Shown here: positions 3,101 through 37,338 of the stretch, in pieces | Position numbering within the stretch: the first letter of the stretch is position 1 | Layout of the letters: each line of letters opens with the position of its first letter | Source: Oscillospiraceae bacterium | GTDB taxonomy: Bacteria > Bacillota > Clostridia > Oscillospirales > Acutalibacteraceae | DNA length: 64,000 nt | Reading direction: 5' to 3' | Assembly (NCBI GenBank): GCA_031262985.1 | Contig: JAISGQ010000030.1 | Location: forward strand, 1-64,000 | Program-made: the position numbers and the translations under genes | The notes under the pieces: generated by a model | The model's database searches: none | What the model was told of the DNA's origin: nothing | Seen by the model: only the letters and a program-made list of their open reading frames with translations

Positions 3101-4117
3101 GTGACCGATAAGGACGGCGAAACGCAGGACGTAAAGCTCTCCGACGTTGCCGACATTACCGACGGCGAAAGCCTCAAATCAATCCTGAGAGACAATCAGG
3201 TGCGGTATATCACCGTCTCCTGCGCTCTCCAGACCGGCTACAACGTAGGACTTGTCGGGCGTGAGCTTAACGAGCAGATAAACTCCTACCAGCCGCCTAA
3301 GGGCGTTACCCTCGAGATTGAGGGCGAAAACACCATGATTAACGAGGCTCTCGGCGACCTCGGGCTTATGATGCTCTTCGCCATCGCGCTTATCTACCTC
3401 ATCATGGTCGCGCAGTTCCAGTCGCTCCTCTCTCCGTTTATCATCATGTTCACCATTCCCCTCGCCTTCACGGGCGGTCTTATCGCGCTGATTATCTGCG
3501 GAATGGAACTTAGCGTAATCTCCCTTCTCGGATTCCTCGTACTATCGGGAGTTGTGGTAAATAACGGAATAGTGTTTGTCGATTACACCAATCAGCTGCG
3601 CGAATCGGGCATGACTATGCGCGAGGCACTGATTGAATCGGGGAAAACCCGTATGCGCCCCATTCTCATGACCGCGCTTACCACTATACTCGGTCTGTCT
3701 ACCCTCGCAATGGGCTTTGGCATGGGAGCTGACCTCATTCAGCCGATGGCGGTTGTCACTATAGGAGGACTTATTTACTCCACGCTTATGACTATGTATG
3801 TCGTTCCCGTACTCTACGAGATATTCAATAAGAACGACAAGCTCAACAGGAAGGCGAAGAAGCTGCTCAAAGCCGCAAAGCTCGAGGCACTTGCGGCGGC
3901 TCAAGCGGGGGATTCCTCTCTCGCGCTGGCGGCGGGAGAACCTGCCGCTGTCACTGCCCTCCCGCTCTCGCTGATAGGCGAAGGAGCTGAAATTATTCTC
4001 ACTCCCGCACAGAATGAGACAGAAGGCTCAACTCCTGCGGCGGATGACGTAGCTCCTGCGGCTGATGAAGCCCCTGCCGTGGAGGATGAAACACCGTCCG
4101 GCGGCGATACGAACTAA
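188..4117 (+). CDS. RND-family efflux transporter with coiled-coil insertion
   Basis: A 1309-residue AcrB/SwrC-type (ACR_tran) proton-driven exporter of the cytoplasmic membrane. A membrane anchor lies at about residues 11-31, transmembrane bundles at about 535-700 and 1055-1215, and the conserved RND segment GVGMLVDNSIVVIEN at about 590. Two features are unusual. Residues about 190-400 of the first extracytoplasmic loop form an Ala/Glu/Gln/Leu-rich coiled coil that classical AcrB lacks. The last ~90 residues are an acidic Ala/Pro-rich tail after the final membrane helix. The start follows AAGGAGATG with good spacing. A HlyD-type partner, if present, would be left of the window. Substrate unknown; drug, lipid or peptide export are all possible. 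Confidence 0.9.
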   Translation: MLQKYSVKRPLTVVVAVLAIIILGVVSFMNSTTDLLPKMELPYVVVYTTYPGASPEKVETSVTKPLEQALATTSGIKNINSVSSENVSVVIMEFNQDTGMDGVMIEISSSIDMVKPYFDELVGVPTIMKINPDMLPVVVASVDMDGMDAAQLSAYVKEKVVPAIERLDGVASVTASGLVEKQLSITLSEQKIDALNAKIRTALDNSFAEGEEQLADAEKKLKNAIGMINAKGAEARGQITDGLAKINAAIKQFEAMIAAAPPADEIAAQKELLTQNIALLKQSLATEEGNLAALSSEDASYASIKARVDALKATIAELEATLAQLTALESAPAQLAALKEQKAQLEAAEGQLNSQLNQASGQLGSAQKQIKDGKEQLAEQKEAAIENSAVDKFITADMIKGLLAAENFSMPAGYISVDNDDKIVKVGDTFVSSEEMAALVLTNIDLEGVGEITLSDVADIAFIDNSDEVYAKINGNNGIILSVQKQSTSSTVDVSESVAEAFAELEKEHEGMHITSLNDQGTYINIVVDSVVQNLLYGGILAVLILFLFLLNIKPTAVVAVSIPVSLLFALVLMYFSGVTMNIISLAGLALGVGMLVDNSIVVIENIYRMRSLGKSAKEAAIEGASQVAGAIASSTLTTICVFLPIVFTQGISRQLFTDMGLTIAYSLIASLIVALTVVPSFSVVTLKNFKEPKMNLFGKFAKVYGKTLSFTLKFKPLVLLLAVGLLVFAGFKAYSMGTAFMPDSDALQLTASITTPKEYTTEQTREVSDEFIEIVSEIDGIATVGANEGGGAMAAMVGMSGAGGGGGNSVSYYLILDEERTISSDEIIAQIFDRTKNLDCEVTANGSGMDEMSALTGSGISVKISGQDLDTLTAVSRDIAGIMQKVEGTTEIDDGTGESSAELRVIVDKNKAILKNLTVAQVYAKLAERLSSNNNATTVTIDSEEYPVVVIDGTKDAVTEENIGDFVVGTVTDKDGETQDVKLSDVADITDGESLKSILRDNQVRYITVSCALQTGYNVGLVGRELNEQINSYQPPKGVTLEIEGENTMINEALGDLGLMMLFAIALIYLIMVAQFQSLLSPFIIMFTIPLAFTGGLIALIICGMELSVISLLGFLVLSGVVVNNGIVFVDYTNQLRESGMTMREALIESGKTRMRPILMTALTTILGLSTLAMGFGMGADLIQPMAVVTIGGLIYSTLMTMYVVPVLYEIFNKNDKLNRKAKKLLKAAKLEALAAAQAGDSSLALAAGEPAAVTALPLSLIGEGAEIILTPAQNETEGSTPAADDVAPAADEAPAVEDETPSGGDTN

Positions 4118-23630: not shown

Positions 23631-25277
23631 CTACATCTCCTTGCTGTCGCGTATCTCCTTGCGCTTGATTTTGCCGCTGATTGTCTTCGGGAGGTCGGTT
23701 ACAAACTCCACAATCCTCGGGTACTTGTAGGGGGCAGTCTGCTTCTTGACATAGTCCTGAAGCTCCTTTTTCAGCTCCTCACTCGCGGAGTAGCCGTTCG
23801 CGAGGACGATAGTCGCCATTACTACCTGCCCTCTGATTGGGTCGGGAACGCCTGTAACGGCGCACTCGACTACAGCGGGATGCTCCATAAGCACGCTCTC
23901 AATCTCGAACGGACCTATGCGGTAGCCGGAGGACTTGATGATGTCGTCGTTTCTTCCCACATACCAGAAGTAGCCGTCCTCATCTACCCACGCTATGTCG
24001 CCTGTGTGGTAGAGTCCGTTCTCGCACACCTGCTCGGTGAGGAGGTCGTTTTGGTAGTAGCCCGAGAACATTCCCACAGGCTTCTTGCCGTCTGTAATGC
24101 GAACACATATCTCGCCCGTAGCACCCTTGGTGGCGAGGTTTCCCTCAGAATCCACAACTACCACGTCGTAGGCGGGAGACGCCTTGCCCATAGAGCCGGG
24201 CTTCGGGTCTGTACCCTTTTGGTTAAATACGGTCAGAGTAGTCTCCGTCTGACCGAAGCCCTCCATGAGCTTGAGCCCCGTGTGCTTCTTGAACTGCTCG
24301 AACACCTCGGGATTGAGAGCCTCGCCCGCGATACAGGCGTACTCAAGGCTCGAGAGGTCGTAGGAGGAGAGGTCCTCCTGAATAAACAGGCGGAACATGG
24401 TGGGAGGAGCGCAGAAGGTGGTTATCTTGTATTTCGCGAAAAGAGTGAGAAGCTGAGCGGGCGCGAAGCGGTCGAAGTCACAGCAGAATATCGGCGCCTC
24501 CATGAACCACTGCCCGTAGAGCTTACCCCACATAAATTTCATCCAGCCGGAGTCGGAGAGTGTGAGGTGCAGTCCGTTCGGGTTGACGTTGTGCCAGTAT
24601 TTCGCGGTGGGTATGTGTGCCATGGGGTAGGTGTGGGAGTGTACGACCATCTTCGGCATTCCTGTCGTTCCGCTCGTGAAGTAGAGGAGGATTGGGTCCT
24701 CCGCGAGAGTATCTCTGCGCTCGAACGTCGTTTTCGCCGTCTTTAAGAGGTTATCGAAATTGAGCCAGCCCTCACGCTCGCCCTTTACGGTCATCTTCAT
24801 TGTGACAGTGGGACACTTGGGCATTGCCTCCTCCACACGCGAGGGGAGGTCGCCGTCGGTGGTGCAGATTACTCCCATTATCCCCGCCGCGTTACAGCGG
24901 TACTCTATGTCGTGAGCCATGAGGAGGTTAGTTGCCGGTATGCCGATTGCGCCTATTTTGTGGAGTGCGAGGCATATAAACCAGAACTGGTAGTGTCTTT
25001 TGAGTATTATCAGCACACGGTCGCCGCGCTTAACTCCCGCGTCGGTGAGGATATTCGCCGCAATATCCGAATATTTCTTCATGTCGCCGAAGGAGAAATC
25101 CCTCTCGTCGCCCTTGTCGTTGCACCAGAGCATAGCCCTCTTGTTTGGTTCTTCCGTGCCGATTACGTCAACTACGTCGTAGGCGAAATTGAAGTTTTCG
25201 GGATAGACCGCCTCGAATTTCTCAAGCAGTCCGTTATACATTGTCTCTTTGCAGTATTTCTGATGTAAGTTTAACAT
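23631..25277 (-). CDS. Acyl-CoA synthetase (AMP-forming), probably branched/medium chain
   Basis: 548 residues, ANL superfamily, AcsM/MbcS-like. P-loop YFTSGTTGMPKM; A5-like GFGQTETT; hinge YVGRNDDIIKSSGYRIGPFE; C-terminal catalytic lysine in TISGKIKRKEIR. It activates a carboxylic acid to the adenylate and then the CoA thioester in the cytoplasm. It is 4 bases downstream of a cupin-HTH regulator and the pair is behind a T-box with an Ile-type specifier. That context favours 2-methylbutyrate or a related branched acid as substrate, feeding isoleucine synthesis by reductive carboxylation. This substrate is inference. Confidence 0.9.
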   Translation of the reverse strand: MLNLHQKYCKETMYNGLLEKFEAVYPENFNFAYDVVDVIGTEEPNKRAMLWCNDKGDERDFSFGDMKKYSDIAANILTDAGVKRGDRVLIILKRHYQFWFICLALHKIGAIGIPATNLLMAHDIEYRCNAAGIMGVICTTDGDLPSRVEEAMPKCPTVTMKMTVKGEREGWLNFDNLLKTAKTTFERRDTLAEDPILLYFTSGTTGMPKMVVHSHTYPMAHIPTAKYWHNVNPNGLHLTLSDSGWMKFMWGKLYGQWFMEAPIFCCDFDRFAPAQLLTLFAKYKITTFCAPPTMFRLFIQEDLSSYDLSSLEYACIAGEALNPEVFEQFKKHTGLKLMEGFGQTETTLTVFNQKGTDPKPGSMGKASPAYDVVVVDSEGNLATKGATGEICVRITDGKKPVGMFSGYYQNDLLTEQVCENGLYHTGDIAWVDEDGYFWYVGRNDDIIKSSGYRIGPFEIESVLMEHPAVVECAVTGVPDPIRGQVVMATIVLANGYSASEELKKELQDYVKKQTAPYKYPRIVEFVTDLPKTISGKIKRKEIRDSKEM

Positions 25278-25281
25278 AAAA

Positions 25282-25860
25282 TTAACCCTCCGCTTTATCT
25301 TTCATAACCACAGCCATAAACACACATTCCTTGCCGCCTGTGGCAATCATTCCGTGTGCTCTTCCCGAATCGTAGTAAACGGCGTCTCCCTCGTTCAAAA
25401 CCTCGGTGTGTGTTTCAAACTGCACCTTTAGAGAACCGCTGAGTACGTAGTCAAACTCCTGCCCCTCGTGGGTGGACAGTTCGATTTCCTTCGTCTGCGC
25501 CTCCTCGCTGTAGGGGGCGGTTACGACAAACGGCTCGGAGATTTTATCTCTGAAACGATACGCAAGATGATTGTACTTGAAGCCCGCGCGGCGTTTTATG
25601 TCTAAGCCCTCGCCCGAACGTACTATCGAGTAGAAGGAGAGCTTGGGGTTTTCTCCCGTCAGCAGCTCCACAATGTCAACTCCGAACTTTTCGGCGCATT
25701 TGTAGAGGAATGTGAAGCCGAAATCGACCTCTCCGTTCTCCGCCTTCGTGTAATCCTCGGAGGACACACCTGCGGCTGCCGCCATCTCATCTGCGGAAAA
25801 ATCCATAATTTCTCTCAGAGCGCGGATTCGCTGTGCGACCTCGATTAACTTTGTCTCCAT
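25282..25860 (-). CDS. XRE-HTH regulator with C-terminal cupin
   Basis: 192 residues from the ATG at 25860, which follows AAAAGGAG; upstream codons of the longer frame lie inside the T-box leader. An XRE helix-turn-helix occupies residues ~8-65 (SADEMAAAAGVSSEDYTKAE) and a cupin_2 beta-barrel ~110-190 (EFDYVLSGSLKVQF..., LNEGDAVYYDSGRAHGM). This regulator type is commonly paired with acyl-CoA ligases and probably senses a small ligand. First gene of the T-box operon. Confidence 0.9.
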   Translation of the reverse strand: METKLIEVAQRIRALREIMDFSADEMAAAAGVSSEDYTKAENGEVDFGFTFLYKCAEKFGVDIVELLTGENPKLSFYSIVRSGEGLDIKRRAGFKYNHLAYRFRDKISEPFVVTAPYSEEAQTKEIELSTHEGQEFDYVLSGSLKVQFETHTEVLNEGDAVYYDSGRAHGMIATGGKECVFMAVVMKDKAEG

Positions 25861-25899
25861 TTGTAAAATCTCCTTTTCAATTTGAATTTTTGCGACAAA

Positions 25900-26160
25900 A
25901 AAGCCCGCCCCGTAATAACGGGACGAGCATAACTCGCGATACCACCCATTTTGCCGTCTATAAAAAGACGACCACCTCAAAAGACTCCAACAAGCCTTTG
26001 GCACTTAACGCAGCCAACACGGGACAACCTTACTCGCAAAATGCTTTAGGGCGCCTGCTCAGGAGTGATTAGCCTTCTGCACGAAATAACGTCAGCATTC
26101 CACCAACTGCCGACTCTCTGTGGATATTTTACTGTGCAGTGCCGTCTCCATCAACGCATT
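25900..26160 (-). promoter_or_regulatory. T-box riboswitch, specifier probably AUC (Ile)
   Basis: Read on the minus strand. Stem I carries AGAGAG (about 26113-26118) and GGTGGAA. The specifier region TAATCACTCC has AUC at 26067-26069 followed by the usual A. The T-box antiterminator sequence TGGGTGGTATCGCGAG is at 25933-25948. A terminator follows (25903-25927, gctcgtccc... / ggggcgggc, then TTTTTT). Uncharged tRNA-Ile would stabilise antitermination and switch on the cupin-HTH and acyl-CoA synthetase genes. The T-box itself is certain by motif; the specifier register is likely. Confidence 0.9.
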
Positions 26161-26393
26161 TGAATTTATGTCTTGGATTTTAACAGAGTGAATTTGAATT
26201 GTCAAGGGTTTTTTGAAATATTTTTTATTGCCCAATTTATTGCGCGAAATATTAAGCGCATAATGTTTCGTTAATTATAGTGTTAATCTTGACAATTTTA
26301 CTTGCAAATTTATACTTATTGTGCTATTATTCACATATGGTTAATAAAAATGTATTACAATACATCAAAACTACAGCTTGAAAGGTGATTACT

Positions 26394-27739: not shown

Positions 27740-28162
27740 TTACTTCTTCCCCGCGTACACCGCCTCGCAGTACACACAGCGGTAGTTCACGCCGTCGTCG
27801 CAAATCTCGAACACCTGCTCAATCTCCTGCTCGGTCATGGTGATACAGCGCGGATTGTTGCATGAGACAAGATTGACAAGCCGCCGAGGAGCAACCACCC
27901 GCTCCTTGCGCTCAAGCCGCTCGTCCTTAATGACGTTGACGGTGATATTCGGGTCAATGTAGCCGATGACATTGAGGTCGATACATATATCGGCGTCAAT
28001 CTTGATTATGTCCTTACGACCCATTTTCTCACTGCGTACATTCTTTATTATGGCTATGCAGCAGTCAAGCTCATCCAGCCCGAGAGCGTGGTACAGCTCC
28101 ATACTCCTGCCCGCCTTTATGTGGTCGAGTACTATTCCCTGCTTAATGCTGTCTACCTTCAT
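27740..28162 (-). CDS. pyrI: Aspartate carbamoyltransferase regulatory chain
   Basis: 140 residues, usual for PyrI. N-terminal allosteric domain (GIVLDHIKAGRSMELYHAL) and C-terminal zinc domain with CNNPRC and CVYC. It binds CTP/ATP and tunes PyrB activity. It starts directly after the pyrB stop with GGAGG in the pyrB 3' end, so the two are translated together, giving the holoenzyme stoichiometry. Last gene of the pyr cluster. Confidence 0.97.
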   Translation of the reverse strand: MKVDSIKQGIVLDHIKAGRSMELYHALGLDELDCCIAIIKNVRSEKMGRKDIIKIDADICIDLNVIGYIDPNITVNVIKDERLERKERVVAPRRLVNLVSCNNPRCITMTEQEIEQVFEICDDGVNYRCVYCEAVYAGKK

Positions 28163-29077
28163 CTACTGCACCTCCAGAAGAGTTTTAATAAGTGCCATTC
28201 TTACATACTTCCCGTTGCTTACCTGCCTAAAGTAGCAGGCACGCTTGTCGTCGTCGACCTTGACGGAAATCTCATTCACTCTCGGGAGGGGATGCATGAT
28301 TATTGCGTCCTCCTTCATGAGACCTACCTTCTCCATGTCAAGAATGAAGCTGTCCTTGAGCCTGAGGTAGTCCTCCTCGTTGAAGAAGCGTTCGCGCTGA
28401 ACTCTCGTCATGTATATCGCGTCGAGGGAGGGCAACTCCTCCTCCATGCTGCCCGACTCCCTCCAGCTCACATTTTGGTGCTTTGCAAGCTCGCTCTTGA
28501 CATAGGCGGGGAGTGAAAGCTCCTCGGGGGAGATGAAAATCAGCTTGATATCCTCATAATTGCACATCGCACTGACAAGGGAGTGTACGGTCCTCCCGAA
28601 CTTTAAGTCGCCGCACAGTCCTATGGTAAGCCCGCTGAGCTTACCCAGCTCCCTCTTTAGCGTGAGTAGGTCGGTAAGCGTCTGTGTAGGATGGTTGTGT
28701 CCTCCGTCGCCGGCGTTGATGATAGGCACACAAGACCGCTGGGAGGCAAGCAGTGGCGCGCCCTCCTTTGGGTGGCGCATAGCTATAATATCGGCGTAGC
28801 AGGACACTGTCTTCACGGTGTCGCTCACGCTCTCGCCCTTAGAGGCGGAGCTGGACTGCGCCTCCGAAAAGCCCAGTACGCTCCCGCCAAGCTCGAGCAT
28901 CGCTGCCTCAAAGCTCAGGCGCGTGCGGGTGCTCGGCTCGAAGAAGAGCGTGGCAAGCTTCTTCCTCCTGCACACCTCGCTGTAGTCGTCGGGGTGTTCT
29001 ATGATATTTTCCGCAAGGAGGAGAATATCGTCTATCTCCTCTGTTGTGAAGTCCTTAATGTCGATTAGATGTTTCAA
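28163..29077 (-). CDS. pyrB: Aspartate carbamoyltransferase catalytic chain
   Basis: 304 residues. Carbamoyl-phosphate loop [12 protein letters not shown] at about 45-56, HPTQTLTDL, and [10 protein letters not shown] near the end. It condenses carbamoyl phosphate and aspartate to N-carbamoylaspartate, the committed step of UMP synthesis. Start is TTG at 29077, eleven bases after GGAGG. The 113-base gap to pyrE shows no promoter I would defend, only short direct repeats (cggtagttctcagtgg type). Confidence 0.97.
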
Positions 29078-29190
29078 TTAAGCGTAAACCTCCTGTGTAG
29101 TATCAGTTAGTTCTCGGTAGTTCTCAGTGGTTATCGGTTAGGTGACTGTTGACACAAGTTAAAATGCTAATGCTTAGGCGTCAATCCCTA

Positions 29191-29817
29191 TTACATCCAG
29201 CTTTCGTCTGACGGATTGTCGCGGAACTTGAGCAGTCTCTGCACGTCCTCAGGCTGGATGTAGCCCTCCTGTGCGGCGACCTCAACAAGCGCATCGAGAT
29301 TGGAGAGGCTGATGTTCCTGACATTCGCCGCAGCCAGCCGCTCTACTCCCTTCTTCATGCCGTAGGTGAATATGCTGACGATTCCCAGCACCTCCGCTCC
29401 TGCCTCGCGCAGTGCCTCCACTACCTCGATTACACTGCCGCCTGTGGAGATGAGGTCCTCGACGACTACGACCTTCTGCCCCTCTACCGATTTGCCCTCA
29501 ATCTGATTGCCTCTGCCGTGGGATTTAGCTCCCGAACGCACATAGCCCATAGGCATATCGAGAAGGTAGGCGGAGATAGCGGCGTGGGCTATGCCCGCCG
29601 TGCTTGTCCCCATGAGCATTTCGCATGAGGGGAAATTCGCGCGTACTGTTTCGGCTATCCCTTCCTCCACGCGGCGGCGAACCTCGGGGTAGGATAATGT
29701 CAGCCTGTTGTCGCAGTAGATGGGGCTTTTGATGCCGCTCGCCCATGTGAACGGCTCGTTCGGGCGGAGGAACACCGCCTTAATCGAAAGCAGGTCCTTA
29801 GCTGTTGTCTTTTCCAT
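29191..29817 (-). CDS. pyrE: Orotate phosphoribosyltransferase
   Basis: 208 residues. The PRPP-binding motif [14 protein letters not shown] lies at about 113-126 and [15 protein letters not shown] is the flexible loop. It transfers ribose-5-phosphate from PRPP to orotate, giving OMP for PyrF, its upstream neighbour. ATG after AGGAG. Confidence 0.97.
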
Positions 29818-29848
29818 TTCAATCTCTCCTAAAAATATGTTTCTTTAC

Positions 29849-29883
29849 TGAAGCTGTAGTGTATTTTATACACTACAGCTTCA
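29849..29883. other. Perfect 16-bp hairpin between pyrF and pyrE
   Basis: tgaagctgtagtgtat and atacactacagcttca pair perfectly around a ttt loop, overlapping nothing and ending just before the pyrF stop codon. No clean T-run follows on the minus strand. It may act as an mRNA processing or stability element between the two genes. Confidence 0.6.
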
Positions 29884-29887
29884 ATTA

Positions 29888-30586
29888 CTATCCGATAAAT
29901 TCAGCGACGCAACGCCTGTAGATCGCCACAGGGTCGCTTGCACCCGTAATCGGTCTGCCGACAACGATGTAGTCAGAGCCTATCTCTTTCGCCATAGCGG
30001 GAGTAGTAACCCGCGACTGGTCGTCCATACTGCCGTCTGCGAACCTGATTCCGGGAGTGACGGCGGCGAACTCCTTGCCGCAAGCCGCCTTCACAATACC
30101 CGCCTCGAGGGGGGAGCAAACGACGCCGTCCAGCCCCGCTGTTTTCGCATTCTTCGCGTACTGCGCCACTACGTCCTCGATTTTCTCGTCTATGAGCAGT
30201 TCGCTTCGCATACGCGCCTCGCTTGTAGACGTAAGCTGTGTCACGGCAATGAGGATAGGTCGGCTCTTGTCCTGCCTCGTCAAGCCCTCGATAGCCGCCT
30301 TCATCATGTCGATTGTACCTGCCGCATGGACGTTGCACATATCCACATCCATACCCGCTATCACAGCCATTGCTTTTTTCACCTGCATGGGTATGTCGTG
30401 GAGCTTGAGGTCGAGGAAAACCTTGTGTCCCCTCTCCTTGATTGCCCTTACGATAGAAGGACCTTCCGCGTAGTAAAGCTCCATGCCTACCTTGACGAAG
30501 GGCTTCTCCTCCTCGAATTTGCCGAGAAAGTCAAACACCTCGCCTGCCGATGCGAAATCCAAAGCAATAATTACGTCTTTTCCCAT
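29888..30586 (-). CDS. pyrF: Orotidine-5'-phosphate decarboxylase
   Basis: 232 residues, of the short (bacterial type 1) class. Catalytic K-D-K-D array in HKVFLDLKLHDIP, C-terminal phosphate loop VTPGIRFADG and DYIVVGRPITGASDP. It makes UMP from OMP. ATG after AAGGAG. It is separated from the LRR gene upstream by ~200 bases with two hairpins and may have its own promoter there, though none is clear. Confidence 0.97.
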   Translation of the reverse strand: MGKDVIIALDFASAGEVFDFLGKFEEEKPFVKVGMELYYAEGPSIVRAIKERGHKVFLDLKLHDIPMQVKKAMAVIAGMDVDMCNVHAAGTIDMMKAAIEGLTRQDKSRPILIAVTQLTSTSEARMRSELLIDEKIEDVVAQYAKNAKTAGLDGVVCSPLEAGIVKAACGKEFAAVTPGIRFADGSMDDQSRVTTPAMAKEIGSDYIVVGRPITGASDPVAIYRRCVAEFIG

Positions 30587-30633
30587 TTGTTATTCTCCTT
30601 CTTAATATTCATCCGTAGTATGGTTCTATAGCA

Positions 30634-30677
30634 GTCACCATGGGAGGGATGGATTCTGATTTTTTTCCATCCCTTTT
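30634..30677 (+). terminator. Terminator-like hairpin upstream of pyrF
   Basis: agggatgga and tccatccct flank ttctgatttttt, followed by TTTT on the plus strand. No plus-strand gene is upstream, so its role is unclear; on the minus strand it is a stem in the pyrF leader. Confidence 0.4.
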
Positions 30678-30697
30678 TCGTTCCTCCACTTTTTTGT

Positions 30698-30732
30698 GAC
30701 ATTACCCCGCACGTTGAGGGCGGGGTAATGTC
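30698..30732. other. Strong hairpin between LRR gene and pyrF
   Basis: gacattaccccgc and gcggggtaatgtc form a perfect 13-bp stem with a 9-base loop. It is likely to affect readthrough or processing between the LRR genes and pyrF on the minus strand, but has no T-run on that strand. Confidence 0.55.
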
Positions 30733-30788
30733 GAGGCACCAATCATGTTATAAACATAAAATTAAAATTTTGGGATACTGCAACAATA

Positions 30789-32522
30789 TTAGGTGTACCA
30801 AGTAATCGCGATTCTCGGTTTCGCGTTCTTGAGCTTTTGTGCGTTGTCCATCTTCATTGCATTGAATCCGAGGTGCAATTCCTTGAGGCTCTTGCAGTCC
30901 TTGAGCGGCATACAGTCCTTAACAGATGTGTAGAAGAGATTAAGTGTCTGCAATTTGTCGCATTTTGCAAGCGGCTTAATGGTTGTTATGCCGACCTTGA
31001 ATATATACAAGGTTTTAAGCTTTGCATACTTCTGAAGCGGAGTGAGGTCGATATTAGCATCGATGTTTACAATTGAGAGACCCGTTAAATTTGGAATATT
31101 CGCAAAAGCATTGAGGTCAACATTACTGCCGTTAATTGTTACTTCAGTAAGCTTTGTCAAGCTGTTCAGTGGGGAGAAATCCGTGATTTTGCTTTGATAT
31201 ATAAACTCGATATATTCAAGTTTTTCCAGATATTTAATCATTCCTATATCTGTTATGCTGTCCGCTTCATCAGAATCTCCGATATAGGCAGATGTTGCAG
31301 TCAAAGCAAGTCTTGAATTTCCTATAGTAACGTGCGAAAATTGAACATCGCAAGCGGGGTAGAGTGTGTTTATTGCTTCCAAATCCGCCTGTGATACTCC
31401 GAACGAACCGAAATTAAACGACTTAACATTCGTAAAGTAGGGGAGAGCAGCCTGAATGGATTCGGAGGATACGCCGCTTATTCTTGTAAGTTGTACATCT
31501 TCAGCGTCGGAGTTTACGTACACATCCTCGCCCACGGGAACTGACCAAATAATTTCTACTCCTTCGCCGACCGACAGAGCAAGGGAGTCGTACTCGTCGA
31601 AACCAATCGCGTCGAACGAGATGTCATCCTGTATCGTAAGGTCAATCTTTTTAAGAGCGTAGAACTTGCCGACCTCAGATGCGAATGTGAAGAAATTGCC
31701 CTCGCCTATGTCGGCGGAGGTGATAGTCTCCATGTTCGAGAGGAGGGTCTTGTTCCCTATGTTAACATCATAGATGATGTCGCAGCCGGGAACTGCGCTC
31801 ATTATTTTTCCCAGCTCTGTCTCTGTCAAATTGATACCGCTGATGTTGAGTGTCTCGAGGTTGTCCATTCTCGCGAGCATGATAGTGTTCGGAATCTCTC
31901 CTCCGGAGAGGTCAAGCTCGGTTGTCTTCGTGCTGATAAACTCGCCGCCGAGGTAGGTTATAGGCACTAAGAACCACGCGCCGACCAGCAGTGCTATCAG
32001 TCCTGCGACTACAGACAGAGAGATGATGAGTGCCTTTTTGCTCTTCTTGCCCTTAGGCGGATTGCCGTTAGGCAGAACCACGCCCTGCACAGGAATCTGC
32101 TGTACCATGGGAGGCTGTGCGTAGTTTACAGGCTGCATATAGTTTACAGGGGGCTGAGCGTAGCCTGCGGGGGGCTGTGCATATCCTGCCGGAGGCATAT
32201 AGTTTGCCTGCGGCGGCATTACGGGCTGAGTGTACACGTTGTAGGCGGGCTGTACCTCAGGCGCGGCAGGTATCGGATACGCGGGAACTGCCTCTACGGG
32301 AGCTGCCTCTACGGGAGCGGCAATCTCTACTGGGGCTACTGCTTCTACAGACGCTGCAACCTCTGCGGGAGCTGCCTCTGCGGGAATTGTCTCCACAGAA
32401 GCGGCAACCTCTGCGGCTACTGTCTCTACGGGAGCGGCAACCTCTGCGGTTACTGTCTCTGCGGTCTCTGTAGGCGCAGATTCAGTTGTTGCGGCGGTTA
32501 CATCGAACATTTTCTCTTCCAT
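30789..32522 (-). CDS. Leucine-rich-repeat membrane protein 1 (in pyr cluster)
   Basis: 577 residues. The N-terminal ~100 residues are an Ala/Val/Glu/Pro repeat (variants of AAPVETVAAEVAASVE), then Pro/Tyr-rich YAQPP repeats to ~155. A KGKKSKKALI stop-transfer precedes one membrane helix at about 165-187. About 380 residues of leucine-rich repeats follow, outside the membrane (LETLNISGI, LTEVTINGS, LKTLYIFKV, LKELHLGFNAM). The outer domain is clearly paralogous to the next gene. Nothing in it suggests pyrimidine chemistry; it may bind a surface ligand. Confidence 0.8.
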   Translation of the reverse strand: MEEKMFDVTAATTESAPTETAETVTAEVAAPVETVAAEVAASVETIPAEAAPAEVAASVEAVAPVEIAAPVEAAPVEAVPAYPIPAAPEVQPAYNVYTQPVMPPQANYMPPAGYAQPPAGYAQPPVNYMQPVNYAQPPMVQQIPVQGVVLPNGNPPKGKKSKKALIISLSVVAGLIALLVGAWFLVPITYLGGEFISTKTTELDLSGGEIPNTIMLARMDNLETLNISGINLTETELGKIMSAVPGCDIIYDVNIGNKTLLSNMETITSADIGEGNFFTFASEVGKFYALKKIDLTIQDDISFDAIGFDEYDSLALSVGEGVEIIWSVPVGEDVYVNSDAEDVQLTRISGVSSESIQAALPYFTNVKSFNFGSFGVSQADLEAINTLYPACDVQFSHVTIGNSRLALTATSAYIGDSDEADSITDIGMIKYLEKLEYIEFIYQSKITDFSPLNSLTKLTEVTINGSNVDLNAFANIPNLTGLSIVNIDANIDLTPLQKYAKLKTLYIFKVGITTIKPLAKCDKLQTLNLFYTSVKDCMPLKDCKSLKELHLGFNAMKMDNAQKLKNAKPRIAITWYT

Positions 32523-32696
32523 TTTTCATTCCTCCATTATTTTTTTGTAAATCAATAATAGCTGAAAATACGATGTTCTCTTTGCGAGCCGTTCTCAGCT
32601 ATTTTTACCGAAATTAAAGCGCGGAGTTTGTCCTCTGCGGGCGGTTTGAACTCTGTGGGGGCTGTCCTCCGCGGACAGTGCATAGGCGGATATCGC

Positions 32697-34196
32697 CTAA
32701 TAGTAGTAAATCACCTTAGCTCTTGTCCTCGCCTGCAGACGCGCCACATCTACTACATCAGCGTTGTTGTAGCCGAGATGAATCTCCTTAATCCCCTTGC
32801 ACTGCGCGAGGGGGTCTATATCCCGCACCTTCGTGTTGAAGATGTAGAGCGTCCTCAATTTGCCGCACTTTTGGAGAGGCGCAACGTCGGTTATTTCCGC
32901 TTCATTTATGTAGAGATACTCCAGCTTGCCGCATTTTGCGAGCGGTTCGAGGGAGAATTTCGACGGAATTTTGAGGAGGTATAGCTTCTTCATACCCTTT
33001 AAATATGAGAGCGAATCCAAATTTATAAGGGAGTTTTCGAGCGTTACGCTCTCGATTTTCGGGAGCGAATTAAACGCCTCGAAGTCGGCTATCTTATTCT
33101 GATTGCGTATGGTCAAGCTTTGCAACGCCGTCATGTATTTTAGCATGGAGATGTCGGTTATGCCGTCTGTCTCCTCGTTCTGACCTATCTCAGCGGATTT
33201 CATTGTCACGTCAAAAACGGTGTTTCCTATGACCGCGTGCCGAACGGTAAATTCGCAGTCGGGCAGGTTGCTCTCCATAAACCGAACTGCGGAGAAATCG
33301 ACCGCGAACCACGCGAAATCCAAGGCACGGAGCTTCTTGAGATACGACAGCGCGGAGAAAAGCGAATCGGAGGAGAGCGACTTGCCGTAATCCTTCAAAT
33401 TGAGCGATTCGGTATCGCTGTCTATAAAGCTGTCGCCTAAAGGAACGCTCCACAGGAGGCTTGTCTTCTCGCCGATATTTTCGATGATGCGGTCGTACAC
33501 CGCCGGCTCCGCGTTTGCTTCCCTTATGTCGAGCGATTTGAGCTTAGTAAAATAACTCAGATTTTCCGCTAAGGAGGAGAGGTTTTCTGCTCCTATATCC
33601 TCGAGCGTGAGGCTCTCGGCGTTGCTGGAGAGGAGCTTATCTCCCACTCGCACGTCGTATATTACCTCGCAGTCGGGCAGGGTGCTTTTGATGGAGGACA
33701 GCTCCTCGTCTCCTATAGCCATCCCCCTCAAATCGAGTGTCTCGAGCTTGCTCATCCTCGAGAGCATGACGAGGGAGGGAACTTCTCCCGATAGGCGGAG
33801 CGTGGTCTCCTTCGTGCTGACAAGCTCCCCTCCCAGATAGGTGTAGGGCAAAAACAGCCACGCGCCAAGTGCCGCCGCCGCAAGCGCGGTAGCCGCAATT
33901 ATGCTTAGAACCGCCGTCTTGAAGTAGGAGAAAAATCCGCTCCCGCTCACTGCCGCGTCCTCTGCCGTGTTCTCTGCCGCACTCCCTGCCGAATCGGATT
34001 CATCCGCGCAGTCGGGAAGGAGGTTTGCCCCCTTCTCGCTTTGAGTGTCAGCGGGGCTTATCTCCTCCGCGCGGTTCTGTGTGCCGTCCTCCGCGCCGAA
34101 GGACAATCTGCCCTTTGCTTTGAGCGCAGAGGGAGGAGTCTTTCGCGCTGTACGCGTATCGTCTGTTTTCTCAATAAACTGCTCTTTTTCTTTCAT
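32697..34196 (-). CDS. Leucine-rich-repeat membrane protein 2 (in pyr cluster)
   Basis: 499 residues. Acidic/Ser-rich cytoplasmic N-terminus (1-85), one membrane helix at about 90-115 ending in FLPYTYLGGE, then leucine-rich repeats to the C-terminus (LETLDLRGM, LKSLDIREA, LQSLTIRNQ, LRTLYIF, IKEIHLGYNNADV). LGGE(F/L)(I/V)STKETT at the domain start is shared with protein 1, so the two are tandem duplicates with different N-termini. Located between pyrD and pyrF on the same strand. Function unknown. Confidence 0.8.
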   Translation of the reverse strand: MKEKEQFIEKTDDTRTARKTPPSALKAKGRLSFGAEDGTQNRAEEISPADTQSEKGANLLPDCADESDSAGSAAENTAEDAAVSGSGFFSYFKTAVLSIIAATALAAAALGAWLFLPYTYLGGELVSTKETTLRLSGEVPSLVMLSRMSKLETLDLRGMAIGDEELSSIKSTLPDCEVIYDVRVGDKLLSSNAESLTLEDIGAENLSSLAENLSYFTKLKSLDIREANAEPAVYDRIIENIGEKTSLLWSVPLGDSFIDSDTESLNLKDYGKSLSSDSLFSALSYLKKLRALDFAWFAVDFSAVRFMESNLPDCEFTVRHAVIGNTVFDVTMKSAEIGQNEETDGITDISMLKYMTALQSLTIRNQNKIADFEAFNSLPKIESVTLENSLINLDSLSYLKGMKKLYLLKIPSKFSLEPLAKCGKLEYLYINEAEITDVAPLQKCGKLRTLYIFNTKVRDIDPLAQCKGIKEIHLGYNNADVVDVARLQARTRAKVIYYY

Positions 34197-34290
34197 TGCG
34201 TTTCACCTTTTTTCGCCAGTGTAGGGAGTGCTGTGCAGTAGCAATCCTGCCGTACTGCCTACGTCTAATTCCGTACTGCTTACTGCCTAC

Positions 34291-34327
34291 TGCCGTATTG
34301 CCGTATTGCCGTATTGCCGTATTGCCG
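34291..34327. repeat. 8-bp tandem repeat (TGCCGTAT x 4.7)
   Basis: Four perfect copies of TGCCGTAT plus TGCCG abut the pyrD stop codon, with degenerate relatives back to 34250. It occupies the pyrD-LRR2 gap and could vary in copy number by slippage. Confidence 0.85.
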
Positions 34328-35245
34328 CTAACTGTGCGCCTTTCCGACTATGTCGGCAAGGCTGTCTATACCCAGCTTCTCCATAAGGGGAGGGAGCTGT
34401 TCGATTATCCTCTTGCAGGCATACGGGTCGCGGAGATTAGCCGCGCCTACCTGCACGGCAGCCGCCCCTGCCATCATCATCTCGATTACGTCCTCCGCAC
34501 TGCTTACTCCTCCCATGCCCATAATGGGGATGCTGACCGCCTCATACACCTGATATACCATGCGAAGCGCGACAGGGAATATCGCAGGACCTGAGAAGCC
34601 GCCCATTTTGTTGGCTATGACGGGCTTTCCCGTCTTTATGTCTATCCTCATGCCGAGGAGCGTGTTTATCATGCTTATGCCGTCCGCTCCCGCCTCCTCG
34701 CACGCCTTTGCGATACTCGCTATATCGGTGACGTTCGGGCTGAGCTTGATGTAGACGGGCCTGGTCGTAACCCTCTTTACCGCCTGTGTGATTTCAGCCG
34801 CCGCCTCTGCCGATGTGCCGAAGGCTATCCCGCCTCCGTGGACATTGGGACAGCTGACGTTTACCTCGATTATCCCCACCTCGGGGCATTTGTCCGCTCT
34901 CTCACAGCAGTATACATACTCCTCCTTCGAGAAGCCGCCGATATTGGCAATCAGCGGGCGGGAGAATAATTTAGCTGCGTTTGGGAACTCGGTCTCCGCT
35001 ACCTCCTCGATGCCGGGGTTTTGCAGTCCTACGGAGTTTATCATGCCGGAGGTACACTCCGCTATTCTCGGAGTGGGATTGCCGAAACGCGCCTCCCGCG
35101 TAGTACCCTTTACCGAAATAGAACCGAGTATGTTAAGGTCGTAAAACTCCGAAAACTCCCTCCCGAAACCGAAGGTGCCGCTCGCGGGAATTATCGGATT
35201 GGGCATTTCTATGCCGCTGAGATTTACACTCATATTAACGCTCAT
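34328..35245 (-). CDS. pyrD: Dihydroorotate dehydrogenase, class 1B catalytic subunit
   Basis: 305 residues. FMN-binding PyrDB features: IPASGTFGFG near the start, NVSCPNVHGGG with the catalytic cysteine, VKLSPNV-type KLSPNVTDI, and IGMGGVSSAEDVIEMMMAGA at the end. It oxidises dihydroorotate to orotate and passes electrons through PyrK to NAD+. Start after GGAGGCGG, 12 bases downstream of pyrK. Confidence 0.96.
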   Translation of the reverse strand: MSVNMSVNLSGIEMPNPIIPASGTFGFGREFSEFYDLNILGSISVKGTTREARFGNPTPRIAECTSGMINSVGLQNPGIEEVAETEFPNAAKLFSRPLIANIGGFSKEEYVYCCERADKCPEVGIIEVNVSCPNVHGGGIAFGTSAEAAAEITQAVKRVTTRPVYIKLSPNVTDIASIAKACEEAGADGISMINTLLGMRIDIKTGKPVIANKMGGFSGPAIFPVALRMVYQVYEAVSIPIMGMGGVSSAEDVIEMMMAGAAAVQVGAANLRDPYACKRIIEQLPPLMEKLGIDSLADIVGKAHS

Positions 35246-35257
35246 ACTTCCCGCCTC

Positions 35258-35998
35258 CTACCAAATTATCTCGTCTCTTTCGAGAATCGGACCGTCCTTG
35301 CATATGCGTTTGTACTTGTACTTCGTCTTGCAGGAGCAGCCCATACACGCGCCGAAGCCGCAAGCCATACGCTCCTCAAAGCTGTACTGCCCGTCCGTGC
35401 TCACCGCGTTATACACTGCGCGGAGCATGAGCGGCGCGCCGCAGGAGTATGTGTAGTCGAAATCGAATCTATCGAGAAAGTCGATGACTAAGCCCTTTTC
35501 TCCCGCACTGCCGTCCGCCGTGCAGAGTATCACTCTGTCCGCGCCGACGAGGGCTTTGAACTCCTCGACATAGAACGCGTCCGCCGCGCTGTTAAAGCCC
35601 AGTATTACCGACGGGTGCTTGCCCTTTTCTACAAGTTCCTTTGTCAGGGCGTACATGGGAGGAACGCCTACTCCTCCTCCTATCACAAGCGGAGAGCCGC
35701 CGCCCTTGCCGGTGTCGTAGCCGTTTCCCAAGCTGAGCAGAAGGTCGAGTTTTTCCCCCTCCTTCATCTCAGACATATGCTCCGTGCCGCCGCCTATGGT
35801 CTTGTAGATGAGGGTGAGACTGCCCTTTTTGTAGTCGCATATTGATATGGGGCGGCGAAGGTAGAAGCCATCCAGCTGTACATTGACAAACTGCCCGGGA
35901 GCGGAGATACCCTCGGTGTTTCCGCTCAGCTTAATCTCGAACACGTTGTTCGCTATCTTGACATTTGAATCTATCGTAAAAATTTCGCAAGTAGGCAT
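35258..35998 (-). CDS. pyrK: Dihydroorotate dehydrogenase electron transfer subunit
   Basis: About 246 residues from the ATG at 35998. FAD domain (RRPISICDYKKG), NAD domain (VIGGGVGVPPMYAL), and a [2Fe-2S] cluster in CGFGACMGCSCK plus a later cysteine (ICKDGP). It joins PyrD in the class 1B heterotetramer. The longer frame to 36106 reads through a degenerate copy of the pyrC 3' end and is not a real extension. Confidence 0.96.
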   Translation of the reverse strand: MPTCEIFTIDSNVKIANNVFEIKLSGNTEGISAPGQFVNVQLDGFYLRRPISICDYKKGSLTLIYKTIGGGTEHMSEMKEGEKLDLLLSLGNGYDTGKGGGSPLVIGGGVGVPPMYALTKELVEKGKHPSVILGFNSAADAFYVEEFKALVGADRVILCTADGSAGEKGLVIDFLDRFDFDYTYSCGAPLMLRAVYNAVSTDGQYSFEERMACGFGACMGCSCKTKYKYKRICKDGPILERDEIIW

Positions 35999-36034
35999 TA
36001 ACGCAAATCCTCTTTTCTGTAAATCCTGTATTGG

Positions 36035-36064
36035 CTGTAGGTGAACTTCCTGCCGCACCTCTGT
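36035..36064 (-). pseudogene. Degenerate duplicate of the pyrC 3' end
   Basis: About 30 bases (minus strand gtgcggcaggaagttcacct...) repeat the last codons of pyrC at 36076-36105 (gtgcggcgggaaggtcgtct...). It is a short tandem duplication in the pyrC-pyrK gap, with no coding role of its own. Confidence 0.6.
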
Positions 36065-36075
36065 AACCCTATGCC

Positions 36076-37338
36076 CTATCGGCTGTAGACGACCTTCCCG
36101 CCGCACACCGTCATGGTGTTCACTCCCCGCACCCGCTTCCCCTCAAAGGGAGTAGCCCTGCCCTTAGACAGGAAGGAGGAGGAATCAATCGTATACTCCG
36201 TATTTAAATCCACCACCGCGAAGTCGGCTTGCTTGCCCTCCTCTATACCGAACTCGCGGGAGAGGAGCTTTCGCGGATTGATACTCATAAGCTCGGTCAG
36301 CCGCTCGAGTGTGATTACTCCCGTTTCTACAAGCTCCGTGTAGAGGACGGGGAACGCGGTCTCAAGCCCCGTAATCCCCATGTTGCTAAGTTCTAACCCC
36401 CTGCTCTTCTCCTCGAAGGAGTGGGGAGCGTGGTCGGTTGCTATTACGTCTATCGTGCCGTCGAGAAGTCCCTCGATAAGGGCGGCTTTGTCCTCTCTGC
36501 TTCTGAGCGGAGGGTTCATCTTAAACCTGCCGTCCTCCTGCAAGTCCTCGTCGCACAGCGTCAGGTAGTGCGGCGCGGTCTCGCACGAAACGGGAAGCCC
36601 CTCCCGCTTTGCCTTGCGGATAAGCTCTACGCTCTCCTTTGCCGATATGTGGCAGGCGTGGTATCTGCAATTAGTCTGCCGCACAAGCTCAATGTCGCGC
36701 AGGAGCTGTCCCCACTCGCTCTCGCTGCAAATTCCCCTGTGTCCGTGGGACTTCGCGTATGCGCCGTCGTGGATATATCCTCCGCGCAGAAGCTCCTCGT
36801 CCTCGCAGTGAGCGGAGATGAGCTTTCCCAGACGCGCTGCCTCCTCCTGCGCCTTTCGCATGACAGCACTGCCTTGTACTCCCTTGCCGTCGTCGGAGAA
36901 GCCCGCAACGAACGGGGCGAGCGAATCGAAGTCCACAAGCTCCTTCCCCTTCTGCCCTATGGTGATAGAGGCGAAGGGGAGAACCTCCACCGCCGCGTCA
37001 CGGCTGATTATATCGAGCTGCTCGCGAAGGTGGGGGAGGGTGTCGGGTACGGGGCTGAGGTTCGGCATGGAGCAGAGCAGGGAGTAGCCCGCCTTTGCCG
37101 CCGCCTCTGTCCCCGACTTGATTGTTTCTTTATACGAAAAACCCGGTTCCCGCAAATGTACGTGTACATCAGCGAAAGCCGGAAGGAGATATAAGCCGTC
37201 AATATTAAACACGGAATCAAATCCGTCGTCACAAATGTTAAAGCAAACCGATGTTATAATTCCGTCACACACGGAAACATCAGCCTTTTTAAACCCGAAG
37301 GGAGTATATACATTGCCGTTTTTAAGTAGCATTTTCAT
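36076..37338 (-). CDS. pyrC: Dihydroorotase
   Basis: About 420 residues, the long bacterial type 1 class. Metal ligands in DVHVHLREPG (HxH) and ATDHAPHS; the FSDDGKGVQ and SAHCEDEELL segments of the amidohydrolase barrel are present. It cyclises carbamoylaspartate to dihydroorotate. I choose the ATG at 37338 over 37371 because it has GGGGAAACGGT before it. First gene of the pyrC-K-D unit behind promoter 37393-37421. Together the cluster lacks only carbamoyl phosphate synthetase. Confidence 0.95.
   Translation of the reverse strand: MKMLLKNGNVYTPFGFKKADVSVCDGIITSVCFNICDDGFDSVFNIDGLYLLPAFADVHVHLREPGFSYKETIKSGTEAAAKAGYSLLCSMPNLSPVPDTLPHLREQLDIISRDAAVEVLPFASITIGQKGKELVDFDSLAPFVAGFSDDGKGVQGSAVMRKAQEEAARLGKLISAHCEDEELLRGGYIHDGAYAKSHGHRGICSESEWGQLLRDIELVRQTNCRYHACHISAKESVELIRKAKREGLPVSCETAPHYLTLCDEDLQEDGRFKMNPPLRSREDKAALIEGLLDGTIDVIATDHAPHSFEEKSRGLELSNMGITGLETAFPVLYTELVETGVITLERLTELMSINPRKLLSREFGIEEGKQADFAVVDLNTEYTIDSSSFLSKGRATPFEGKRVRGVNTMTVCGGKVVYSR

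What the first reader, a model, noticed from the sequence alone, without database searches (positions are those of the whole stretch)
25282..26160. Isoleucine-type T-box controlling an acyl-CoA synthetase
A complete T-box precedes a cupin-HTH gene and an AMP-forming acyl-CoA synthetase, not an aminoacyl-tRNA synthetase or a classical Ile gene. The specifier reads AUC. Known: some anaerobes make isoleucine from 2-methylbutyrate by activation to the CoA thioester and reductive carboxylation. Inference: this ligase provides that precursor when tRNA-Ile is uncharged, giving a substrate hypothesis that the protein alone could not.
Basis: partly seen in the sequence, partly recalled or inferred. Interest (0 to 1): 0.8.

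Follow-up and report, generated by a model that had tools for sequence, protein, structure and literature searches.

The report
Isoleucine-sensing RNA switch controls acyl-CoA synthetase
An RNA switch that senses uncharged isoleucine-tRNA sits in front of an enzyme predicted to activate branched short-chain fatty acids, and across many gut Clostridia the same enzyme family carries either an isoleucine or a valine version of the switch, suggesting how these bacteria turn scavenged 2-methylbutyrate and isobutyrate into amino acids.

Summary
The T-box is real (Rfam RF00230, 98.7 bits, window 26163-25916, minus strand). It precedes an HTH-cupin gene and an AMP-forming acyl-CoA synthetase, and its specifier is AUC (Ile). 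The same register fits all seven other T-boxes of this genome. The ligase's closest solved relative is Methanosarcina MacsMa (3ETC), whose published preferred substrate is 2-methylbutyrate, the Ile precursor. The arrangement is widespread: of 194 non-redundant homologues, 92 carry an Ile (AUC) T-box, 26 a Val (GUA/GUC) T-box, none any other amino acid. Tandem Ile+Val pairs occur at about 20 loci. At one acyl-pocket position Val-labelled enzymes always have Ala and Ile-labelled ones almost always Gly; a sample from other families agrees (Val 15/15, Ile 50/51). Genomes with the Val version mostly lack ilvC (3 of 23 have it, against 82 of 127 others). For the window's own enzyme it is likely but less certain: that pocket position is Met, and the genome still has cimA and ilvB. 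No enzyme, RNA or growth assay was possible. T-box biology is known; this target class and the Ile/Val pairing were not found in any survey I could read.

The parts
25916..26163 (-). T-box leader (stem I, stem III, antiterminator), Rfam RF00230
   Evidence: 98.7 bits, gathering score 93, E 1.6e-20
26067..26069 (-). Specifier AUC (Ile), followed by A26066 and the CUCC strand of stem I
   Evidence: Rfam register; register consistent on 7 other T-boxes of this genome
25935..25947 (-). T-box sequence GGGUGGUAUCGCG with the UGGU bulge that pairs with the tRNA acceptor end
25897..25928 (-). Intrinsic terminator hairpin followed by six U, competing with the antiterminator
   Evidence: read from sequence; segment fold -36.6 kcal/mol, z -4.58
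25282..25860 (-). HTH-cupin regulator gene (192 aa); fused to the ligase in many relatives
   Evidence: Pfam HTH_19 and Cupin_2; fusions
23631..25277 (-). AMP-forming acyl-CoA synthetase of the MacsMa type (548 aa), predicted 2-methylbutyryl-CoA synthetase
   Evidence: Pfam AMP-binding; best PDB match 3ETC, 676 bits
24540..24542 (-). Codon of Met246, aligned to MacsMa Gly255 (3ETC chain position 278), the position that separates Ile- from Val-labelled ligases
   Evidence: residue number = 3ETC chain position minus 32

Best explanation
This is a transcription-attenuating, isoleucine-specific T-box riboswitch that turns on an HTH-cupin/acyl-CoA synthetase operon when tRNA-Ile is uncharged. Shown by sequence: the T-box, its AUC specifier, the terminator, the gene order, and the conservation of Ile or Val specifiers in front of homologous ligases. 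Inferred: the ligase converts scavenged 2-methylbutyrate to 2-methylbutyryl-CoA; a 2-oxoacid:ferredoxin oxidoreductase carboxylates it reductively to 3-methyl-2-oxopentanoate; and transamination gives isoleucine. In relatives a paralogous ligase under a valine T-box does the same for isobutyrate to valine, and many of those genomes lack the classical ilvC/ilvD steps. In the window's own organism the route is probably a salvage supplement to a de novo pathway.
For: T-box and AUC register. Closest solved enzyme 3ETC/MacsMa, 676 bits, published preference for 2-methylbutyrate (PMC10455477); pocket Trp259 conserved in all homologues. Among 194 non-redundant homologues: 92 Ile, 26 Val, 0 other amino acids; in other families of the class 51 Ile, 15 Val and one truncated leader not read. 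About 20 tandem Ile+Val loci. Rfam itself gives GUA for Val leaders and AUC for the Ile leaders of the same tandems. Pocket position: Val 26/26 Ala; Ile 87/92 Gly; second sample Val 15/15 Ala, Ile 50/51 Gly. ilvC present in 3 of 23 Val-T-box genomes against 82 of 127 others, p 4.6e-6; by my reading the same three genomes hold ilvD above cut-off. Own genome has two indolepyruvate-type and one other 2-oxoacid:ferredoxin oxidoreductase. Rumen literature: 2-methylbutyrate is an Ile precursor and isobutyrate a Val precursor (PMC7356843).
Against: The window ligase has Met246 instead of Gly at the pocket position; in its subclade of 17 only two members have a clear T-box. The own genome has citramalate synthase and acetolactate synthase, so the de novo route probably exists; ilvC and ilvD were not found, but at 79% completeness one assembly gap could hide both. 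The NCBIfam MbcS cut-off is not met (469.7 against 850). Val labels need only about 3 changes on the ligase tree, of which 2 are firmly forced, so the Gly/Ala match rests on few independent events.
Confidence: 0.74

Rival explanations
1. The ligase makes branched acyl-CoA primers for membrane fatty acids (like S. aureus MbcS) and the T-box induces it when branched-chain amino acids, the usual primer source, run short.
For: MbcS is a related enzyme selective for 2-methylbutyrate and isobutyrate that feeds FabH (PMC10026030); best NCBIfam match is MbcS.
Against: Val-T-box genomes mostly lack ilvC and ilvD, which points to amino-acid supply; splitting Ile and Val control between paralogues is not needed for fatty-acid primers.
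Confidence: 0.12
2. In the window's Met246 subclade the enzyme works on a smaller acid such as propionate; propionyl-CoA is carboxylated to 2-oxobutyrate, which enters the classical isoleucine pathway. The Ile T-box still makes sense.
For: Met is bulkier than Gly or Ala at the pocket position; many Met-type ligases are in genomes with ilvC; the own genome has ilvB.
Against: Met with an Ile T-box also occurs in a separate clade, L050/L054; ilvC and ilvD were not found in the own genome.
Confidence: 0.1
3. The T-box mainly serves the HTH-cupin regulator, and the ligase scavenges acetate or another general acid.
For: The HTH-cupin gene is first in the operon; most members of the window's own subclade have no T-box.
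Against: Regulator and ligase are fused into one protein in many families, with the T-box kept; the Ile/Val split follows a ligase pocket residue.
Confidence: 0.04

Closest known systems
T-box riboswitch (Rfam RF00230)
   Same: Whole architecture, AUC specifier, UGGU bulge and terminator; transcriptional type.
   Different: The target is an acyl-CoA synthetase; T-boxes normally control aminoacyl-tRNA synthetases, classical amino-acid biosynthesis genes and transporters. Wels 2008 (PMC2494555), the main text of a 2013 survey (PMC3766115) and the TBDB paper (PMC7778990) mention no such target.
MacsMa, medium-chain acyl-CoA synthetase of Methanosarcina acetivorans (PDB 3ETC)
   Same: Aligns almost end to end (676 bits); pocket Trp259 and the acyl-adenylate motifs conserved.
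   Different: Gly255 of MacsMa is Met246 in the window enzyme; the archaeal organism lies outside the known T-box range (own knowledge).
MbcS of Staphylococcus aureus
   Same: Same superfamily; published substrates 2-methylbutyrate and isobutyrate (PMC10026030).
   Different: Feeds branched-chain fatty acid synthesis; NCBIfam equivalog cut-off not met here.
Branched-chain amino acid synthesis by reductive carboxylation of 2-methylbutyrate and isobutyrate in rumen anaerobes (classical isotope work cited in PMC7356843)
   Same: Predicted chemistry and typical habitats of many relatives.
   Different: I found no paper that names the activating enzyme or its regulation in Clostridia; here a candidate gene with amino-acid-specific control is identified.

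Membership tests
T-box riboswitch RF00230 | Covariance-model score above the curated gathering score | tested here: met
   98.7 bits against 93
T-box riboswitch RF00230 | Specifier codon in the stem I loop matching one amino acid | tested here: met
   AUC; register consistent on seven other T-boxes of the genome
T-box riboswitch RF00230 | T-box bulge UGGN and a competing terminator | tested here: met
   GGGUGGUAUCGCG and hairpin plus U run
T-box riboswitch RF00230 | Induction by uncharged tRNA-Ile | not testable with these tools
   needs a reporter or in vitro transcription
MacsMa-type medium-chain acyl-CoA synthetase | Closest solved relative is MacsMa, with both domains | tested here: met
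   3ETC 676 bits; next best ACSM2A 406 bits; Pfam domains
MacsMa-type medium-chain acyl-CoA synthetase | Acyl-pocket Trp259 | tested here: met
   aligned residue is Trp in every homologue, the window enzyme included
MacsMa-type medium-chain acyl-CoA synthetase | Gly at position 255, as in MacsMa and 87/92 Ile-labelled ligases | tested here: not met
   Met246 in the window enzyme. This position is not an established family definition; it is a correlate found here
MacsMa-type medium-chain acyl-CoA synthetase | Activity on 2-methylbutyrate | not testable with these tools
   needs an enzyme assay
MbcS equivalog NF047394 | Score above the curated cut-off | tested here: not met
   469.7 against 850
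Reductive-carboxylation route to Ile | 2-oxoacid:ferredoxin oxidoreductase in the genome | tested here: met
   two IOR alpha plus beta pairs and one Vor/Kor-type complex; their substrates are not known
Reductive-carboxylation route to Ile | Branched-chain aminotransferase | tested here: inconclusive
   one class IV aminotransferase (PF01063, 107 bits), subtype not resolved
Reductive-carboxylation route to Ile | Classical route absent | tested here: inconclusive
   ilvC and ilvD not found, but cimA and ilvB present and assembly only 79% complete

The most novel reading that the evidence does not exclude
Across many families of Clostridia, T-box specifiers label paralogous HTH-cupin/acyl-CoA synthetases as isoleucine- or valine-supplying (2-methylbutyrate or isobutyrate). 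The substrate switch is marked by a Gly-to-Ala change in the acyl pocket, and this tRNA-controlled scavenging route replaces ilvC/ilvD in many gut and rumen species. It would supply the missing activating enzyme for the classical branched-chain volatile fatty acid requirement.
Probability: 0.65. Interest if true: 0.85.

Novelty: new variant of a known kind. Interest (0 to 1): 0.74.

Why it matters
Rumen and gut anaerobes have long been known to build isoleucine and valine from 2-methylbutyrate and isobutyrate, but I found no paper naming the activating enzyme in Clostridia. Here the regulatory RNA names the amino acid, the nearest studied enzyme names the acid, and a pocket residue separates the two classes. 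That makes the question directly testable: express one Ile-labelled and one Val-labelled ligase and measure a handful of acids. It would also let branched-acid scavenging be read from genomes, which matters for fibre-digesting communities fed isoacids.

Tried and rejected
(1) Specifier in another frame: rejected, because the Rfam register fits the other T-boxes of this genome and AUC is constant across homologues. (2) My first regex called some Val leaders UGU; this was an off-by-one slip corrected by fixing the distance to GAGC and confirmed by Rfam. (3) Own-genome absence of ilvC and ilvD as strong evidence: withdrawn after cimA and ilvB turned up. (4) Independent-pairs test of specifier against pocket residue: too few independent events for significance. 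(5) Leu- or Phe-labelled ligases (isovalerate, phenylacetate): none found. (7) Literature: no paper on a T-box-controlled acyl-CoA synthetase found; two key surveys (Vitreschak 2008, Gutierrez-Preciado 2009) are not held, so prior mention cannot be excluded.

Full report
OBSERVATION. Rfam's T-box model matches the minus strand at 26163-25916 over its full length (98.7 bits, gathering score 93, E 1.6e-20), the only T-box in the window. Its specifier column reads AUC, followed by A and the CUCC strand of stem I. Because the specifier loop has a 3-nt insertion I checked the register on the other T-boxes of the same genome. The same column reads Tyr before tyrS, Asn before gatA, Thr before thrS, Trp before a trpB-like gene and before trpE, Ala before alaS, and UUC/UCU before pheS. 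Seven of seven are consistent, the last with a one-base ambiguity. This also agrees with the rule used in TBDB, which places the specifier one base before the end of the loop, and with AUC being 99% of Ile specifiers there (PMC7778990). A terminator hairpin and U run follow the T-box, so control is most likely by transcription attenuation.

GENES. The first gene (25860-25282) is an HTH-cupin protein; the second (25277-23631), starting 4 nt after the first stops, is an AMP-forming acyl-CoA synthetase. By sequence the nearest solved structure is 3ETC, the Methanosarcina acetivorans enzyme MacsMa (676 bits; the next best, human ACSM2A, has 406). MacsMa's published preferred substrate is 2-methylbutyrate (PMC10455477). 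The related S. aureus enzyme MbcS is selective for 2-methylbutyrate and isobutyrate (PMC10026030), but the NCBIfam MbcS cut-off is not met.

RELATIVES. I collected homologous ligases from 150 genomes of the same family, 80 named genome contigs and further genomes of the class, with their upstream DNA. Of 194 non-redundant ligases in the first set, 92 have a T-box with AUC, 26 have one with a Val codon (GUA, once GUC), 67 have none and 9 have too little upstream DNA (L140 and L142 assigned by eye). No other amino acid occurs. In the class-wide sample, among ligases less than 95% identical to any in the first set, 51 are Ile and 15 Val, from 18 and 9 family groups; one Ile label (L214) was read by eye and one truncated leader (L236) was left unread. 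About twenty loci hold an Ile-labelled and a Val-labelled ligase side by side. Rfam independently aligns GUA to the specifier of the Val leaders and AUC to the Ile leaders of the same tandems. In many families the HTH-cupin and ligase are one protein, so the two genes belong to one functional unit.

POCKET RESIDUE. The alignment column that best separates Ile- from Val-labelled ligases is 3ETC chain position 278. Using two anchor points in PMC10455477 (YHTGD 431-435; Tyr460/Lys461), the chain numbering is offset by 23, so this is Gly255 of MacsMa. [quoted passage not shown] All 26 Val-labelled enzymes have Ala; Ile-labelled ones have Gly in 87 of 92, Met in 4 and Ala in 1. The class-wide sample gives Val 15/15 Ala and Ile 50/51 Gly. 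One added methyl in the pocket fits a substrate one carbon shorter (isobutyrate against 2-methylbutyrate); this structural reading is inference. Val labels need about three changes on a tree built without this column, two of them firmly forced, so the number of independent events is small, and the class-wide sample may share some of those events.

GENOME CONTEXT. ilvC, needed for both Ile and Val by the classical route, is present in 3 of 23 family genomes with a Val-labelled ligase and in 82 of the other 127 (Fisher p 4.6e-6, which ignores shared ancestry). Restricted to genomes at least 90% complete, my tally is 3 of 20 against 69 of 95. By my reading the same three genomes hold ilvD above its cut-off. 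Genomes with only the Ile-labelled ligase are mixed (14 with, 13 without ilvC). The candidate carboxylating enzyme family (IOR) is common in the family, present in 100 of 150 genomes.

THE WINDOW'S OWN CASE IS WEAKER THAN THE FAMILY'S. Its ligase has Met246 at the pocket position. In its subclade of 17 only this enzyme and L012 have a clear Ile T-box, with L014 a weak T-box match at 56 bits. Met together with an Ile T-box also occurs in a separate clade (L050, L054), so Met is compatible with the Ile label, but the exact acid is not settled. The genome lacks detectable ilvC and ilvD but has citramalate synthase, acetolactate synthase and isopropylmalate synthase. At 79% completeness, and with ilvC and ilvD adjacent in several relatives, one gap could hide both. 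The organism probably has a de novo route, and this operon would then be a salvage supplement. It also has two IOR pairs, one next to a phenylacetate-CoA ligase and one without, and a Vor/Kor-type complex.

MECHANISM. Uncharged tRNA-Ile pairs with AUC and, through its acceptor end, with UGGU; the antiterminator forms and the HTH-cupin/ligase operon is read. The ligase makes 2-methylbutyryl-CoA, a ferredoxin oxidoreductase carboxylates it, and a transaminase yields Ile. The leader anatomy and the comparative pattern are shown; the RNA switching, the reaction steps and the role of the HTH-cupin part are inferred.

NOVELTY. T-box riboswitches, Macs enzymes and the branched-acid route to Ile and Val are each known (PMC7356843 for rumen precursors). 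I found no description of T-box control of acyl-CoA synthetases or of the Ile/Val paralogue pairing in the papers I could read; two older surveys were not available. I class it as a new variant of a known kind.

Noticed in passing
L074, L092, L098, L111, L118, L142, L144, L146, L148, L150, L151, L153, L154, L157, L158, L160, L162, L168, L169, L282: Tandem paralogous HTH-cupin/ligase genes, each with its own T-box, one Ile (AUC) and one Val.
   Followed up: yes
L089, about 3600-3870: A Ruminococcus flavefaciens leader with intact T-box core but the specifier part of stem I missing (deletion or assembly error).
   Followed up: no
L100, L105, L106, L109, L113, L114, L117: Fused HTH-cupin ligases of Ruminococcus-type genomes with an AGAGAG motif upstream but no recognisable T-box core; perhaps decayed or divergent leaders.
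   Followed up: partly
G000:C50:56232-56495 (L003): T-box with Asn specifier AAC before gatA (tRNA amidotransferase), whereas Wels 2008 reported none before such genes.
   Followed up: no
G000:C21 (L308) and G000:C41 (L309): Two indolepyruvate-type oxidoreductases: one beside phenylacetate-CoA ligase genes, one without; the second is a candidate for the branched-chain step.
   Followed up: partly
window 27740-36106, minus strand: Run of pyrimidine genes by my reading of the ORFs (pyrI-like, pyrB, pyrE, pyrF, pyrD, pyrK-like) beside the finding.
   Followed up: no
L001 3137-3261: Sub-threshold TPP riboswitch match (40.1 bits, gathering 54.3), cut by the end of the locus, beyond the tyrS T-box.
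   Followed up: no
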